This document shows, one piece after another, positions 14,927 to 21,151 of a stretch of DNA of 32,637 bases. A model generated the notes under the pieces. The model worked only from the letters and a program-made list of their open reading frames with translations. It was not told where the DNA came from and ran no database searches. A program made the position numbers and the translations under genes. This stretch comes from Candidatus Methanoflexus mossambicus (GTDB lineage: Archaea > Methanobacteriota > Methanobacteria > Methanobacteriales > Methanobacteriaceae). The stretch spans positions 1 through 32,637 of the forward strand of contig JAISIT010000144.1 in NCBI GenBank assembly GCA_031261915.1, written 5' to 3'. How positions within the stretch are numbered: the first letter of the stretch is position 1; each line of letters opens with the position of its first letter.

Positions 14927-15367
14927 CTACTTTTTTGGTTTTACCTTAATACCTACCAACTGGATAATATCCGACAATTCATCATCCAATTCAACAGAAT
15001 AATGTATCCATCCTCCAAAATCACCACAAGGATAGCGATTTTTCCAGATATCCTGTGTTTTTGGTAGCAAATCATCCAGTATTGTATCTACTTGGGATGC
15101 TCCTTTGTCATTAATTGAAATAGTGCAACAGAACCCATTTTCTTCAAAAAATACATATAGCAACAATGATTTTTTATGAGCATAACGGAAACTCCAGCCG
15201 TATTCATTGCCGAAAGGAAATTTCATTTCTCGATTTAAGTCATATCGTTCTTGTAACATCTTTTCAAAGTGTATGAGCCATTGCCAAGCATCATCACCTA
15301 AAAAAAGCTGGATAAAATCTTCTGTGGGTTGATGGGACTTTTCAGTCAATCGTTTTTTCTCATTCAT
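14927..15367 (-). CDS. DUF3788 family protein, probably acquired
   Basis: A 146-residue soluble protein with the DUF3788 pattern: DAWQWLIHFEKML (about 26-38), WSFRYAHKKSLLLYVFFEENGFCCTI (about 58-83), then the C-terminal WKNRYPCGDFGGWIHY block. The function is unknown; the fold is thought to bind small molecules or DNA-less partners only by analogy. Its GC content is visibly higher than every neighbour and codons such as CCG, CTG and CGT appear, so it looks horizontally acquired, probably from a Firmicute-like donor. GAGGT lies 7 nt before the ATG. It faces away from the nitrogenase-like cluster. Confidence 0.8.
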   Translation of the reverse strand: MNEKKRLTEKSHQPTEDFIQLFLGDDAWQWLIHFEKMLQERYDLNREMKFPFGNEYGWSFRYAHKKSLLLYVFFEENGFCCTISINDKGASQVDTILDDLLPKTQDIWKNRYPCGDFGGWIHYSVELDDELSDIIQLVGIKVKPKK

Positions 15368-15448
15368 AGAAAAAACCTCATTATTTATAAAAAACTTAAA
15401 AACTAATTACAATAGATTAAAAAAGAAAGTGTAATATATTATTTATTT

Positions 15449-15498
15449 TTTCTATAATTTAAAGTTCTCGTTTTCATGAGTGTGTCAAATTATAGAAA
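15449..15498. repeat. 12-bp perfect inverted repeat around a GC-richer loop
   Basis: TTTCTATAATTT (15449-15460) and AAATTATAGAAA (15487-15498) are exact reverse complements enclosing 26 nt that contain a smaller CTC...GAG pairing. It may be a hairpin in the DUF3788 leader, an operator or a recombination scar. Confidence 0.75.
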
Positions 15499-15530
15499 TA
15501 TTTATATATTATGTTTAATAAAAATATTAT

Positions 15531-15544
15531 ATAACAATTGTTAT
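15531..15544. promoter_or_regulatory. Palindrome ATAACAATTGTTAT, distal copy
   Basis: A perfect 14-bp palindrome, identical to the copy at 15796-15809, and not seen elsewhere in this window. Probable binding site for a dimeric regulator of the nitrogenase-like cluster or of the divergent DUF3788 gene. Confidence 0.65.
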
Positions 15545-15760
15545 AAATTATAAAATAATTTTTATTCTAATAAAATTAAAATATTTTTTTAAATTTTTTT
15601 AAATCAATTTATATTTATTTTAGATTTAAACTTATATTTATTTAGATTTATTTATATTATAGATTTAAAGCATATTTAAAGTATATTTAAAGTATATTAA
15701 AGTCTATAAAGCATACTAAATTATATTTAAAATAATAATAGCTTTATATTTCTATGTGTA

Positions 15761-15768
15761 TTTATAAA
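15761..15768 (+). promoter_or_regulatory. Probable TATA box of the nifH-like gene
   Basis: TTTATAAA; transcription would start about 25 bp on, at roughly 15788-15796, just before or at the proximal palindrome. Confidence 0.45.
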
Positions 15769-15795
15769 TATTTTAAATAAATCTTAAAATTAAAT

Positions 15796-15809
15796 ATAAC
15801 AATTGTTAT
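15796..15809. promoter_or_regulatory. Palindrome ATAACAATTGTTAT, proximal copy (candidate operator)
   Basis: The same perfect 14-bp palindrome, between the TATA box and the ribosome binding site (AGAGGT at 15831-15836). A protein bound here would block RNA polymerase, as expected of a repressor operator. The sequence differs from the GGAA-N6-TTCC operator described for NrpR in methanococci. Confidence 0.7.
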
Positions 15810-15842
15810 GTTTTTAATTAATTATTTTAAAGAGGTAGAAAT

Positions 15843-16712
15843 TTGACAAAAATAAAAGAAATAGCCATATATGGAAAAGGTGGAATAGGAAAGTCCACTA
15901 CAACGTCAAACATTAGTGCAGCATTATCATACGAGGGCTACAATGTAATGCAGATTGGATGTGACCCTAAAAGTGATTCAACTAATACATTAACAGGTGG
16001 AAAATCTATACCAACCGTGCTTGAGTCACTAAGAAAAGGAAGGGGCGCAGTTGAAGTAGAAGATGTGATATTTGAAGGTTATAATGGAATTCACTGTATT
16101 GAAGCTGGAGGTCCTGAACCAGGAGTAGGATGTGCTGGAAGAGGAATAATCACAGCAGTAGAGTTTTTAAAACAGGAAAATGTATTTGAAGAATATGCTC
16201 CTGATGTTGTATTATACGATGTTCTTGGGGATGTTGTATGTGGAGGATTTGCAATGCCAATAAGAGAAGGAGTGGCAGACCAAGTTTATACAGTATCCTC
16301 TGCAGATTTCATGGCTATTTATGCTGCTAATAATTTATTTAAAGGTATTAAAAAATATTCAACTGGAGGTGGAGCATTATTTAGTGGAGTCATTGCAAAT
16401 TCTATAAGTTTTTCAGCGCAAAAAGATATTTTAAATGATTTTACAAAACAAACTGAAAGTACAATTGCTGGATTTGTACCAAGATCCCTTGCAGTCACTC
16501 AAGCAGAACTATCAGGTAAAACAACAATCGAAGCAGACCCTGACAGTGAACAAGCAGAAGTTTATAAAAAATTAGCCAATGATATTTATAAAAATAAGGT
16601 TGAATATGTGCCTTCACCTTTAGAAAGTGATGAACTAAAAGATTGGGCTGCATCATGGTCAGACAAGCTTATTGAAATGAAAAAACAAGAAGAAGGTGAC
16701 TTTAAAATTTAA
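15843..16712 (+). CDS. NifH-like reductase component (H of nitrogenase-like HDK cluster)
   Basis: A 289-residue ATP-dependent iron-sulfur reductase that should pass electrons to the downstream D-K complex. Walker A GKGGIGKST is at 11-19, the switch motif is DVLGDVVCGGF, and the ligands of the inter-subunit 4Fe-4S cluster are Cys97 (GGPEPGVGCAGRG) and Cys133. Arg100 matches the ADP-ribosylation site of NifH. IGCDPKSDST is the style of group IV and other nitrogenase-like H proteins (CfbC, MarH) as well as NifH. The start is TTG at 15843 with AGAGGT 6 nt before it. The partners downstream argue against CfbC, which pairs with CfbD alone. Confidence 0.93.
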   Translation: MTKIKEIAIYGKGGIGKSTTTSNISAALSYEGYNVMQIGCDPKSDSTNTLTGGKSIPTVLESLRKGRGAVEVEDVIFEGYNGIHCIEAGGPEPGVGCAGRGIITAVEFLKQENVFEEYAPDVVLYDVLGDVVCGGFAMPIREGVADQVYTVSSADFMAIYAANNLFKGIKKYSTGGGALFSGVIANSISFSAQKDILNDFTKQTESTIAGFVPRSLAVTQAELSGKTTIEADPDSEQAEVYKKLANDIYKNKVEYVPSPLESDELKDWAASWSDKLIEMKKQEEGDFKI

Positions 16713-16740: not shown

Positions 16741-16848
16741 AATATTAAATGAATATTAAATGAATATTAAATGAATATTAAATGAATATTAAATGAATAT
16801 TAAATGAATATTAAATGAATATTAAATGAATATTAAATGAATATTAAA
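16741..16848. repeat. 11-bp tandem repeat, nine units plus a partial
   Basis: AATATTAAATG repeated nine times without change (16741-16839) and then a partial unit. The period is one helical turn and each unit carries the palindrome AATATT. It fills the gap between the H and D genes; related AAAAGAATATT strings continue to about 16890. Confidence 0.95.
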
Positions 16849-16930
16849 AAAAATTAAAAGTGCATATAAAAGAATATTAAAAGAATATTAAAAATATTTG
16901 AAATATTTAAAACAAATTTAAGGTAATAAA

Positions 16931-18469
16931 ATGTCAAAAAATAAATATTCAGAAGATTATATTGTAAATCTTGAAAAAAATACATGCCCTACACGTGAAC
17001 AACGTGCAAATGGAACCAATGTCTATTTTGGAAAAGCAACTGAACTTCTTGAAGATGCGAAAAAAGGAAATTTAAGATGTACGGAACGAGGATTTCAACA
17101 ATCTGGAGGTTGTATTTTAAATTTTTATCTTTCAGTGAGAGTTTCAACAATCAGAGATGCAGCCATTATATTTAATGGTCCTGTTGGTTGTTCTCATGCA
17201 GCATTAAGTTATAAAGAGTTATATGGTGCAATTCCAGAATCTTTAGGAAAACCAGCTAAATACAACCTAAATTGGCTTACAACAAACTTAGGTGAAGAAG
17301 ATGTTGTATTTGGTGCTAAAGATAAACTTATTGAAGCTATTAAAGAAGCAGAAAAAAGATACAATCCAAAAGCTATTTTTATTTTAACTACATGTGTTAC
17401 AGGAATCATTGGAGAAGATATTGAATCTGCTGTAAATGAAATACAACCAGATATAAATGCAAGAATTGTTCCAATACATTGTGAAGGTGTAAGATCTAAG
17501 ATTATGCAAACAGGATACGATGCATTTTGGCATGGAGTATTAAAATATCTAGTTAAAAAACCAGAAAAGAAACAAAAAGATTTAGTTAACATAGCGAGTA
17601 TGTTATCATATGCATGGCAAGACAGGATTGAAATAGAACGTCTACTTGGAAAATTAGGTCTTAAAGTAAATTGGATTCCAGAATTTGCAAGTGTTGAAGA
17701 CTTCGAACAACTTGGAGAAGCAGCTTTAACTGCACCAATTTGTCCAACCTACACAGATTATATCTCAAGAGGACTCCAACAACATTTTGATGTCCCTTAT
17801 TTCATGTATCCATCTCCTATTGGCATACAAAATACTGATGAATGGCTTAGAGCAATAGCTAAGCATACTGGAAAAGAAGAAGAAGTTGAAAAACTTATAG
17901 CCGAAGAACATGAAAAATGGGTTCCTAAAATGAAAGAGATTAGAGATAAATTTAAAGATCTTGAAATTGAAAGAGGAGGAAAAAAGATTGATGTTTTAGG
18001 TTCACTTGGACAAGGACGGCTTGTTACTCAATTACCATATTTTGATGAATTAGGAGTCAAATCTTCTTCTGCAATGGCTCAGGATTTTGATAATATCTTA
18101 GTTGATGAATTAGAAGAGGTTATTGATAAAGTTGGAGATTTTAATGTAATGGTTAATACTTTCCAAGCTGCAGAACAACTTCATATCACTGAAAAAACAA
18201 AACCAGATATGGCTTTAACTTGTCCTTTCCAAGGAGGAGCTTGGAAGCGTGAAGGTTCTGTTTCAAGACTCCATTCATTAAGAGGAGATCCTAGAAAGTG
18301 GAGTTCACAGGCAGGATATGCTGGTGCAATAGCTTATGGAAACTTCTTACTACAAGCACTTAAAAATGAATCATTACAAAGACTTTCAAAGGAGAATACT
18401 GGAACTGCTGTTAAAAAATGGTATTTAGAACAAGATGATCCTTTATACTTTGCTGAAAAAGGAAAATAA
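16931..18469 (+). CDS. NifD-like catalytic subunit of a nitrogenase-like reductase
   Basis: A 512-residue nitrogenase component 1 alpha-type protein. Cys61 (QQSGGC), Cys87 (GPVGCSHA) and Cys155 (LTTCVTGIIGEDIE) match the P-cluster ligands Cys62/88/154 of Azotobacter NifD. Cys271 (TAPICPTYTDY) and His448 (SRLHSLRGD) align with the FeMo-cofactor ligands Cys275 and His442. In the segment matching NifD 183-196 (here CEGVRSKIMQTGYD) the positions of Gln191 and His195 are Met192 and Tyr196, so the N2-active-site histidine is missing. CfbD lacks a FeMo-type cofactor, so this is a different branch. AGGTAA precedes the ATG. The substrate is unknown; a carbon-sulfur substrate is one option. Confidence 0.9.
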   Translation: MSKNKYSEDYIVNLEKNTCPTREQRANGTNVYFGKATELLEDAKKGNLRCTERGFQQSGGCILNFYLSVRVSTIRDAAIIFNGPVGCSHAALSYKELYGAIPESLGKPAKYNLNWLTTNLGEEDVVFGAKDKLIEAIKEAEKRYNPKAIFILTTCVTGIIGEDIESAVNEIQPDINARIVPIHCEGVRSKIMQTGYDAFWHGVLKYLVKKPEKKQKDLVNIASMLSYAWQDRIEIERLLGKLGLKVNWIPEFASVEDFEQLGEAALTAPICPTYTDYISRGLQQHFDVPYFMYPSPIGIQNTDEWLRAIAKHTGKEEEVEKLIAEEHEKWVPKMKEIRDKFKDLEIERGGKKIDVLGSLGQGRLVTQLPYFDELGVKSSSAMAQDFDNILVDELEEVIDKVGDFNVMVNTFQAAEQLHITEKTKPDMALTCPFQGGAWKREGSVSRLHSLRGDPRKWSSQAGYAGAIAYGNFLLQALKNESLQRLSKENTGTAVKKWYLEQDDPLYFAEKGK

Positions 18470-18745: not shown

Positions 18746-20092
18746 ATGAGTAAGAACAAATCAAAAGAATATATAGATGAATCAAGATCGCCAAGGATTG
18801 TAGAAGCTCCACGATATGGATGTACTTTATCTGGAGCATATGAAGCTGCTGTTGGATTAAATGAAGGTGTTCCAATTCTTCATTCAGGTTCAGGATGCGG
18901 TATGAGTCAGTTATTTGGTGCTAATTACGGAGGAGGACAAAATGCTCCTGGAGATTATGGGGGATCATCAACGCCATGTTCATGTTTAGTTGAAGAGCAT
19001 GTTATCTTTGGAGGAGAAGAAAAATTAAGAAAATTAATTGATTCAACTATAAAAATCTCAACAGGAGAATTTTTCACTGTTATATCTGGATGTGTCCCAT
19101 CTCTTATTGGAGATGATGTTGATGCAGTAGTTGGTGAATTTAGAGATAAAGCACCAATTATCCATGTAAATGCTCCTGGTTTTAAAGGAAATTCCTTTGA
19201 AGGATATGAATTATTTTTTGAAGCACTTATAGACCAATATTTAAAACCTGCAACTGAAAAAAGAAAAAGATTGGTTAATATATTAGGTGTTGTTCCATTT
19301 CAACATATATTTTGGAAAGGAGAACTCAAAGCTATAAAAGACTTACTTGCAAAATTTGATATTGAAGCTAATGTCTTATTTGGAGAGTTTAACACAGTTG
19401 AAAACATTGAAAAGATTCCAGCTGCAGAATACAATATTGTTTTATCTCCATGGGTAGGCCATAGAGCGGCCAAAAAACTTGAGGAAGCATTTAAAACTCC
19501 TTATGTAAGTTTTCCTGGTTTGCCAACAGGACCTATTCAGACTTCAAAATTTTTAAATAAAATAGCTGAAATACTTCCAGTTGATAAAGAAAAAGTTAAT
19601 GAATTTATAAAAAATGAAAAAAGAAGAGCATATCGTATGATTGAATATGTAGGAGATCTTCTTCAATTTGATGTTCCAAATGTTTATTTTGGAGTCGTAG
19701 CTGACTCAAATACTGCAATAAGCATCACAAGATACTTAACTGATGAAGTTGGTCAACTTCCAGATATTGTAATAATCACTGATAATCCCCCTAAAGAATT
19801 TAGGGAGAATATAGTTGAAGCTATAACAAGTAGTGAAGAAATCCAATTTACTCCAGATATTGTTTTTGAAATTGATTCTTATAAAATAAGTCAAATTTTA
19901 AAAGATAGACCATTTTTAAACCTCTATGCAAGCTCACTTGAATCAACCATAACTGATGAATTAGAAACTACCCATGTGACTGTTTCTTTCCCTTCATTTA
20001 ACAGAGCAGTTTTAGTAGACCACTATGTTGGTTTCGATGGAGGATTAAGATTAATTGAAGATCTGTTTTATGATAAAGCTGGTCCTTTATAA
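18746..20092 (+). CDS. NifK-like subunit of a nitrogenase-like reductase
   Basis: A 448-residue component 1 beta-type protein. Cys26 (RYGCTLSGAYEA), Cys51 (HSGSGCG) and Cys116 (VISGCVPSLIGDD) match P-cluster ligands Cys70/95/153 of Azotobacter NifK; Cys78 and Cys80 (PCSC) are extra. It lacks the long N-terminal extension of NifK from Mo-nitrogenase, which fits nitrogenase-like enzymes and Vnf/Anf-type K. Together with the D protein it should form an alpha2-beta2 complex with P-clusters. AGAGGA precedes the ATG. It is followed by a T-rich terminator-like stretch and the convergent GXGXG gene. Confidence 0.9.
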   Translation: MSKNKSKEYIDESRSPRIVEAPRYGCTLSGAYEAAVGLNEGVPILHSGSGCGMSQLFGANYGGGQNAPGDYGGSSTPCSCLVEEHVIFGGEEKLRKLIDSTIKISTGEFFTVISGCVPSLIGDDVDAVVGEFRDKAPIIHVNAPGFKGNSFEGYELFFEALIDQYLKPATEKRKRLVNILGVVPFQHIFWKGELKAIKDLLAKFDIEANVLFGEFNTVENIEKIPAAEYNIVLSPWVGHRAAKKLEEAFKTPYVSFPGLPTGPIQTSKFLNKIAEILPVDKEKVNEFIKNEKRRAYRMIEYVGDLLQFDVPNVYFGVVADSNTAISITRYLTDEVGQLPDIVIITDNPPKEFRENIVEAITSSEEIQFTPDIVFEIDSYKISQILKDRPFLNLYASSLESTITDELETTHVTVSFPSFNRAVLVDHYVGFDGGLRLIEDLFYDKAGPL

Positions 20093-20218: not shown

Positions 20219-21151
20219 CTAATTAAACTTTAAAAATCTATTTGGATTAATCATTAAAGAATTTAATAATTTTTTATCATCATTGGTTATTGTTTGCTCT
20301 TTTAAAGGTGGAATTGGGCTTCCTTTTTTAGCAAAAATAGTTCCTGAAATTCTATTTGCTCCTAAAAATTTACCAGCATTTCCATTAATTATAATTGTCC
20401 CTTTTTTCATTTCAGCAGCAGTAAAATCATCAGTATTTCCGTCAATTATAATAGTTCCACCATTTAAAATTGTTCCACTATTTTTACCTGCATTTCCTTT
20501 AATTCTAACCAAACCATTTCTCATTAAAATTCCTGTAGATAAATCAGCATCGCCATTTAAAACAATTTCAAAATCCTTATTTAAACGAGCCCCAAGAGTA
20601 TCACGAATAAGACCATCATTAATTATTAATTTTTTTCCAGAAATCTCTGCATTAATCATTTTTTCTTTTTTGTTTTCCATAATAATTTCTGTAAGAGAAA
20701 CAAATTTTTTATATCCTTTAAAATCAGATTTAACTTCAACTAAATTGCCTATTGGATCAGTAATATTTCCTTTAACATAAATAGCTCCTTTAATCATACT
20801 AATACCCATACGAGAAGAAACATCCCCTTCAACGAATATATTTCCAACATCAATAGCTTTTCCAGAGCCACCAAAATAAGCTAAATCTACACCCATACTT
20901 GAAGCTAATCTATGACCTGCATCACCATTTATTTTAAGATTTCCATTATTTTTAAGATGATCAACAATTTCTTTGTATGTATAGCTATTTTGAGGAATTT
21001 TATCATTATAATCTAATTTTTCACCCTTATGAGCCCAATAAAAATTATATGTAAAATCAGCTATACAATCAACGGCTTCATCAAAATCCAAAGTAATTAG
21101 GTTTTCCATATCTTCAAGTTTTTTACCTTTTTTTTTAAAAAAACTTACCAT
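20219..21151 (-). CDS. GXGXG beta-helix protein (FwdC/GltB C-terminal-like), standalone
   Basis: A 310-residue protein. From about residue 90 onward it is a chain of short repeats of the form G-x-I/V-x-I-x-G-N/D-A (NLKINGDAG, NIFVEGDVSS, AIYVKGNIT, EIVLNGDAD, LVRIKGNAG, TIIIDGNTD, TIIINGNAG). This is the right-handed beta-helix found in formylmethanofuran dehydrogenase subunit C and the glutamate synthase C-terminus. It lacks the rest of either enzyme. The N-terminal 80 residues are separate and unrecognised. GGTGATTAA precedes the ATG. The HEAT-repeat gene lies 47 bp upstream in the same direction, so they may form an operon. The role is unknown. Confidence 0.82.
   Translation of the reverse strand: MVSFFKKKGKKLEDMENLITLDFDEAVDCIADFTYNFYWAHKGEKLDYNDKIPQNSYTYKEIVDHLKNNGNLKINGDAGHRLASSMGVDLAYFGGSGKAIDVGNIFVEGDVSSRMGISMIKGAIYVKGNITDPIGNLVEVKSDFKGYKKFVSLTEIIMENKKEKMINAEISGKKLIINDGLIRDTLGARLNKDFEIVLNGDADLSTGILMRNGLVRIKGNAGKNSGTILNGGTIIIDGNTDDFTAAEMKKGTIIINGNAGKFLGANRISGTIFAKKGSPIPPLKEQTITNDDKKLLNSLMINPNRFLKFN

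What the first reader, a model, noticed from the sequence alone, without database searches (positions are those of the whole stretch)
15531..15809. Two identical 14-bp palindromes in front of the nitrogenase-like cluster
ATAACAATTGTTAT occurs at 15531-15544 and 15796-15809 and I see it nowhere else in the window. The second lies just downstream of the presumed TATA box, as a repressor site would. It differs from the GGAA-N6-TTCC operator of methanococcal NrpR. Two sites 265 bp apart allow looping.
Basis: partly seen in the sequence, partly recalled or inferred. Interest (0 to 1): 0.65.

Follow-up and report, generated by a model that had tools for sequence, protein, structure and literature searches.

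The report
Sulfur-gene operator in gut methanogens
The two identical 14-base palindromes are copies of a DNA switch that recurs across a whole family of methane-making archaea in front of genes for making cysteine and methionine and for handling sulfur, so the nitrogenase-like enzyme cluster behind them is probably switched on by sulfur shortage rather than nitrogen shortage.

Summary
In detail: ATAACAATTGTTAT lies at 15531-15544 and 15796-15809 and nowhere else in the window; no dinucleotide shuffle out of 5000 reproduces the pair. It is a conserved operator, not a chance repeat. It (or a one-mismatch form) sits upstream of H in 12 of 12 orthologous HDK clusters with upstream DNA, and is enriched across Methanobacteriaceae (329 exact copies against 25 of the reversed control in 139 genomes). 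Of 125 distinct copies examined, 122 are intergenic, mostly about 10-45 bp behind a TATA-like box.

The genes behind it form a sulfur regulon: metY, cysS, cysK-cysE, thiI, metK, hom, ThiS/ThiF-like proteins, sulfonate-type transporters and the nitrogenase-like HDK/DKH. In the window's own assembly it also precedes cysS, thiI, metY and an FAD/GMC oxidoreductase.

HDK's closest solved relative is methylthio-alkane reductase, a C-S bond-cleaving enzyme. The best regulator candidate is a 126-aa Cys-rich HTH protein of an operator-cysK-cysE-HTH operon, nearly universal in the family and absent from outgroups lacking the operator. Repressor mode and sulfur signal are inferred. Looping is not supported.

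The parts
15531..15544 (.). Distal operator copy ATAACAATTGTTAT (also fits the 16-bp form TATAACAATTGTTATA at 15530-15545)
15796..15809 (.). Proximal operator copy ATAACAATTGTTAT, 33 bp before the start codon of H; conserved at -46 to -54 (to the 5' end of the site) in the close orthologous promoters
15501..15508 (+). TATA-like box TTTATATA in front of the distal operator (a second, upstream promoter is inferred)
   Evidence: similar boxes cluster 10-45 bp before operators family-wide
15761..15770 (+). TATA-like box TTTATAAATA in front of the proximal operator; start site inferred near 15790
15832..15836 (+). GAGGT ribosome-binding-like motif before the TTG start of H
   Evidence: sequence; GAGG(T/C) kept in close orthologues
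15843..16712 (+). H: NifH-like reductase (PF00142), just below the NifH cut-off
16931..18469 (+). D: nitrogenase-like catalytic subunit; nearest solved relative MarD (9FMG)
18746..20092 (+). K: nitrogenase-like catalytic subunit

Best explanation
The two palindromes are operators (core ATAAC-N4-GTTAT, best form TATAACAATTGTTATA) of a sulfur/cysteine/methionine regulon of Methanobacteriaceae. A dimeric HTH repressor binds over the transcription start just behind the TATA box and blocks transcription when sulfur amino acids or reduced sulfur are plentiful. When sulfur is short it lets go, and the cell makes cysteine and methionine enzymes, sulfur-relay proteins, sulfonate-type uptake systems and the HDK enzyme. 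HDK is most likely a methylthio-alkane-reductase-like enzyme that frees sulfur from organic sulfur compounds. The most likely repressor is the 126-aa Cys-rich XRE-type HTH protein of the cysK-cysE-HTH operon, itself behind the operator in many genomes; the copy in the window's own assembly is at G000:C192:161-526. Shown here: the sites, their conservation, the target genes, the TATA-proximal position, and the operon linkage and distribution of the HTH gene. Inferred: repression, the sulfur signal, binding by this protein, and the substrate of HDK.
For: Exact or 1-mismatch site upstream of H in 12 of 12 HDK loci with upstream DNA, from several genera, with otherwise diverged spacers, and in most Methanobacteriaceae DKH promoters. 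329 exact copies against 25 control in 139 family genomes; none in 13 outgroup genomes. 122 of 125 distinct copies are intergenic, with TATA-like boxes gathered 10-45 bp upstream. Targets in many genera are sulfur genes: metY, cysS, cysK, thiI, ThiF/ThiS-like, SsuA-like, metK, hom and metB/C-like. In the own assembly: cysS, thiI, metY, GMC/FAD oxidoreductase. HTH gene in an operator-cysK-cysE-HTH operon in many genomes, with variant operators (ATAACAATAGTTAT, ATAACAATCGTTAT) at cysK where the exact 14-mer is missing. Among good-quality genomes 0 of 14 without the gene have an exact copy against 53 of 77 with it. G012, whose HTH copy has an in-frame stop, has no 16-bp operator. MarD is the nearest solved relative of D.
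Against: No binding or expression data. The own-genome count at up to 1 mismatch is not above control. The gene/operator correlation is dominated by one family-versus-outgroup split. G066, G036 and G002 have the HTH gene without a site next to it, and G066 has no 16-bp operator at all. The own-assembly HTH locus (L309) shows no site nearby, though the contig ends 160 bp from the gene. Some targets (a glutamine amidotransferase, hcgB, surface proteins) are not obviously sulfur genes.
Confidence: 0.68

Rival explanations
1. Same sulfur regulon and operator, but read by a different protein: the HTH-CBS protein (PF03444 winged HTH plus two CBS domains, which could sense SAM), or a regulator not found here. 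The cysK-linked HTH protein would control something else.
For: The HTH-CBS gene lies near operator-carrying genes in G017 and G035. CBS domains can bind adenosyl ligands (general knowledge).
Against: The HTH-CBS protein is found in nearly every genome searched, including Methanothermobacter-like outgroups without the operator, and its HTH is almost invariant. No conserved operator stands at its own gene.
Confidence: 0.2
2. The site is an activator or dual-use site, or the two copies work together by looping, in the same sulfur regulon.
For: Several promoters have two or more copies. Nine sites have a second copy at exactly 14 bp, which suggests cooperative binding.
Against: Most copies lie behind the TATA box, where a bound protein would block initiation. 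Spacing between distant copies is not conserved (14-567 bp), and many promoters have a single copy.
Confidence: 0.08
3. Nitrogen control by NrpR through a divergent operator, as expected for a nitrogen-fixation cluster.
For: NrpR-like genes (PF01995) are present in the own assembly and relatives.
Against: NrpR-like genes are equally present in a Methanothermobacter-like genome without the palindrome. The operator sequence is unrelated to GGAA-N6-TTCC, and no such site with up to one mismatch lies in the HDK promoter. The co-regulated genes are sulfur genes.
Confidence: 0.02
4. A chance or mobile-element repeat in AT-rich DNA without regulatory role.
For: In genus g3 an IS-like element end carries the 14-mer and inflates counts there (G042, G029, G003). 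Own-genome counts at up to 1 mismatch do not exceed control.
Against: 0 of 5000 shuffles; conservation in orthologous promoters; 122 of 125 copies intergenic after removing IS-like ones; one dominant functional class of targets.
Confidence: 0.02

Closest known systems
NrpR / GGAA-N6-TTCC nitrogen operator of methanogens
   Same: Palindromic repressor operator near the start site of a nitrogenase-type operon in a methanogen
   Different: Different sequence, different distribution, and sulfur instead of nitrogen target genes
Bacterial cysteine/methionine regulons such as MetJ, MetR, SahR (PMC4239095) and CymR (from memory)
   Same: One regulator controlling cysteine, methionine and SAM genes through a palindromic site; tandem copies in some promoters
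   Different: Archaeal promoters; candidate regulator is a Cys-rich XRE-type HTH protein that matched no NCBIfam model above its cut-off and no solved structure convincingly
SurR of Thermococcales, sulfur-responsive archaeal regulator with GTTn3AAC sites (from memory)
   Same: Archaeal sulfur response, short half-sites with AAC/GTT
   Different: Opposite half-site order (AAC-N4-GTT), different protein family, different target genes
Methylthio-alkane reductase MarHDK of Rhodospirillum rubrum (9FMG; PMC12552129)
   Same: H-D-K gene set, nearest solved structure, and the three P-cluster cysteines of D conserved
   Different: Distant archaeal branch; activity, substrate and cluster type untested

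Membership tests
NrpR operator | GGAA-N6-TTCC sequence in the promoter | tested here: not met
   The palindrome does not fit, and no match with up to one mismatch lies in 15368-15842
NrpR operator | Distribution follows NrpR | tested here: not met
   NrpR present in G145 and G020, which have no exact copy; G145 also has no 16-bp operator
Methanobacteriaceae sulfur regulon (defined here) | ATAAC-N4-GTTAT core in intergenic DNA close behind a TATA-like box | tested here: met
Methanobacteriaceae sulfur regulon (defined here) | Site conserved in orthologous promoters | tested here: met
Methanobacteriaceae sulfur regulon (defined here) | Shared with sulfur genes in the same genome | tested here: met
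   cysS, thiI, metY in the own assembly; caution: assembly 8% contaminated
Methanobacteriaceae sulfur regulon (defined here) | Bound by the cysK-linked HTH protein and derepressed by sulfur limitation | not testable with these tools
   needs binding and expression experiments
XRE-type HTH regulators (PF01381) | HTH_3 domain above cut-off in the candidate regulator | tested here: met
   25.6 bits against a cut-off of 23 for the G017 copy
Methylthio-alkane reductase (Mar) | P-cluster cysteines of D (MarD Cys66, 91, 158) | tested here: met
   Align with D Cys61, 87, 155
Methylthio-alkane reductase (Mar) | P-cluster cysteines of K (MarK Cys32, 56, 121) | tested here: inconclusive
   K Cys26, 51, 116 have nearly the same spacing; not aligned
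Methylthio-alkane reductase (Mar) | Placement inside the Mar clade by phylogeny | not tested
   No tree was built; nearest solved relative is MarD
Methylthio-alkane reductase (Mar) | Reduction of methylthio-alkanes to methanethiol and hydrocarbon | not testable with these tools
   needs enzyme assay or growth test

The most novel reading that the evidence does not exclude
A family of Cys-rich HTH proteins with five invariant cysteines senses iron-sulfur clusters or sulfide and represses, through TATAAC-N4-GTTATA, a sulfur-starvation regulon in Methanobacteriaceae. The regulon's inducible scavenging enzyme is an archaeal nitrogenase-like C-S reductase fed by sulfonate-type transporters. This would be an uncharacterised archaeal regulator class and would give the methanogen nitrogenase-like clusters a role in sulfur supply.
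Probability: 0.35. Interest if true: 0.82.

Novelty: new variant of a known kind. Interest (0 to 1): 0.7.

Why it matters
Little is known of how methanogens acquire and traffic sulfur (PMC8351635), and no sulfur regulon or regulator for Methanobacteriaceae turned up in the paper library. This family includes the main rumen and human-gut methanogens (general knowledge). The operator gives a ready list of co-regulated genes and one testable regulator gene. It also ties the uncharacterised nitrogenase-like HDK/DKH clusters to sulfur supply instead of nitrogen fixation, which makes their function directly testable.

Tried and rejected
MarR protein of G015 (palindrome 110 bp upstream): orthologues in other genera lack the site, and it was not found in operator-rich genus g17. 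Rrf2 family (PF02082): the only widely conserved hit is the HTH-CBS protein, found throughout the order. NrpR: wrong sequence and distribution. Looping: spacing not conserved. Raw own-genome enrichment at up to 1 mismatch: none, so not used. Counts in genus g3 are inflated by an IS-like element. DKH promoters of Methanosarcina, Methanothrix and bacteria show no copy. No Rfam element in the promoter. Structure prediction was not run, because the candidate regulator came from loci outside the permitted sources. Paper searches found nothing on this operator; most subscription papers are not held, so prior description cannot be excluded.

Full report
OBSERVATION. ATAACAATTGTTAT is exact at 15531-15544 and 15796-15809 and has no other window match with fewer than two mismatches. 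In 5000 dinucleotide-preserving shuffles of the intergenic region 15368-15842 (11.4% G+C), at least one copy appeared in 2 shuffles and two copies in none, and no repeated perfect 14-bp palindrome with at least two G/C appeared. The relaxed form ATAACN4GTTAT is expected 0.09 times in the window and occurs twice, at these places. Both copies begin 30-35 bp after the start of a TATA-like box (TTTATATA 15501-15508; TTTATAAATA 15761-15770). The proximal copy is followed by GAGGT and the TTG start of H at 15843.

OWN GENOME. The assembly (3.07 Mb, 316 contigs) has four exact copies. The two outside the window precede cysS and a GMC/FAD oxidoreductase, each again behind a TATA-like box. Including one mismatch there are ten places. 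Three lie inside genes. The others stand before HDK (two), cysS, the oxidoreductase, thiI (90 bp), metY (258 bp) and an HdrC-like gene (207 bp; named by eye from the sequence). The count alone is not above control (10 against 20), so the case rests on position and comparison.

CONSERVATION AT THE CLUSTER. Orthologues of D were fetched from named genomes and from the family. All twelve HDK loci with upstream DNA have the exact site or a one-mismatch form within 300 bp of H. The close group has it at -46 to -54 (M. cuticularis L021, L067, L019, L020, L070, L071). M. filiformis has it at -82. More distant genera have it at -86 to -295, in several cases directly behind a TTTATAT box. Spacer DNA between these promoters has otherwise diverged, except between the two near-identical species L070 and L071. 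Most DKH-type clusters of other Methanobacteriaceae carry it as well, often twice or more. A few (L074, L029, L092) do not within 700 bp of D, nor do Methanosarcina, Methanothrix and bacterial clusters.

FAMILY-WIDE DISTRIBUTION. In 139 Methanobacteriaceae genomes there are 329 exact copies against 25 of the same pattern read backwards. Thirteen outgroup genomes of the order and class have none. Genus g3 is inflated by an IS-like element whose end carries the 14-mer. After removing IS-like copies, 122 of 125 distinct copies in the fetched loci are intergenic, with TATA-like boxes gathered 10-45 bp upstream. In genus g17, sites with up to one mismatch number 19 and 20 against 2 and 3 for control, so most are probably real there. 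The information extends one base outward on each side (TATAACAATTGTTATA), and nine sites have a second copy exactly 14 bp away.

TARGET GENES. Clustering of genes that start behind an exact site gives cysS in six genomes, metY and a GMC/FAD oxidoreductase in five, HDK in four, cysK and a ThiF-like protein in three, and thiI, SsuA-like substrate-binding proteins and a pyridoxal-type kinase in two (domains). One-mismatch sites in g17 add metK (SAM synthetase), homoserine dehydrogenase, a metB/C-like enzyme and a ThiS-like carrier in both genomes, and a MOSC protein in one. This is largely a sulfur amino acid and sulfur-relay regulon. Around HDK in L138 the neighbours are thiI, the oxidoreductase and sulfonate-type ABC transporters.

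REGULATOR. Listing genes near sites turned up a 126-aa protein with an HTH_3 domain as the third gene of cysK-cysE-HTH, with the operator in front of cysK. The arrangement is seen in G017, G025, G010, G033, G020 (1,853,160 bp), G043, G004, G021, G030 and G008; in G006, G007 and G015 the order is cysS-cysK-HTH. In genomes without the exact 14-mer, variants such as ATAACAATAGTTAT or ATAACAATCGTTAT stand at the same place. The alignment shows five cysteines kept in all full-length copies (PPCE or QPCE, CxxC, CxxC). The gene is found in 125 of 152 genomes. Among good-quality genomes, none of 14 without it has an exact operator, against 53 of 77 with it (Fisher 9e-7), but shared ancestry makes this weaker than the number suggests. 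G012 is a useful exception within the family: its copy has an in-frame stop and it has no 16-bp operator. G066 goes the other way: gene present, no 16-bp operator. MarR, Rrf2/HTH-CBS and NrpR candidates were examined and set aside.

WHAT HDK IS. D's nearest solved relatives are 9FMG and 9D9U, 227 bits against 104 for the next nitrogenase. 9FMG is methylthio-alkane reductase MarDK2H2, which releases methanethiol from methylated sulfur compounds (PMC12552129). MarD P-cluster cysteines 66, 91 and 158 align with D Cys61, 87 and 155. A sulfur-scavenging role fits the regulon, but activity and clade membership were not tested.

MECHANISM AND LIMITS. Most likely a dimer of the HTH protein covers the start-site region of each promoter and blocks transcription while sulfur is sufficient. 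Binding, direction of control and signal are inferred. The two-site arrangement is best read as two operator-controlled promoters or reinforcement. Looping has no support, because spacing is not conserved. The assembly is 8% contaminated, and the window's Tex gene is closer to G007 and G009 than to the same-genus genome G001, so the window contig and the other contigs may come from two related organisms. This weakens the own-genome regulon list but not the cross-genome argument.

Noticed in passing
window 16750-16850: About nine head-to-tail copies of an 11-bp unit (GAATATTAAAT) in the gap between H and D.
   Followed up: no
L160-L171, L191, L195, L196 (genus g3): A repeated element end (GTCAAAAATCCTTGTGATAACAATTGTTAT and variants) carries the operator sequence in many places in this genus; a mobile element may be spreading operator copies.
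   Followed up: partly
window as a whole; G000: The assembly is 8% contaminated and holds two NrpR-like genes, and the window's Tex and HDK proteins are closer to other genera than to the same-genus genome G001; the contig may belong to a second organism.
   Followed up: partly
window 14927-15367: Divergent DUF3788 gene (PF12663) with its own TATA-like motif very close to its start codon, so possibly leaderless and not driven from the operator region.
   Followed up: no
window, 24 places (exact at 20310 and 31850): Matches to GGAA-N6-TTCC with up to one mismatch exceed shuffles (24 against 10), most of them inside genes.
   Followed up: no
L305 (G012:C35:1425-1784): HTH regulator copy with an in-frame stop codon in a genome that has no 16-bp operator.
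   Followed up: yes
L013:3419-4265 (G000:C74): HdrC-like iron-sulfur protein gene with ATAACAATAGTTAT 207 bp upstream: heterodisulfide chemistry may be part of the regulon.
   Followed up: no
window 20219-21151: FwdC-like GXGXG-repeat protein, convergent with K, below the curated FwdC cut-offs.
   Followed up: no
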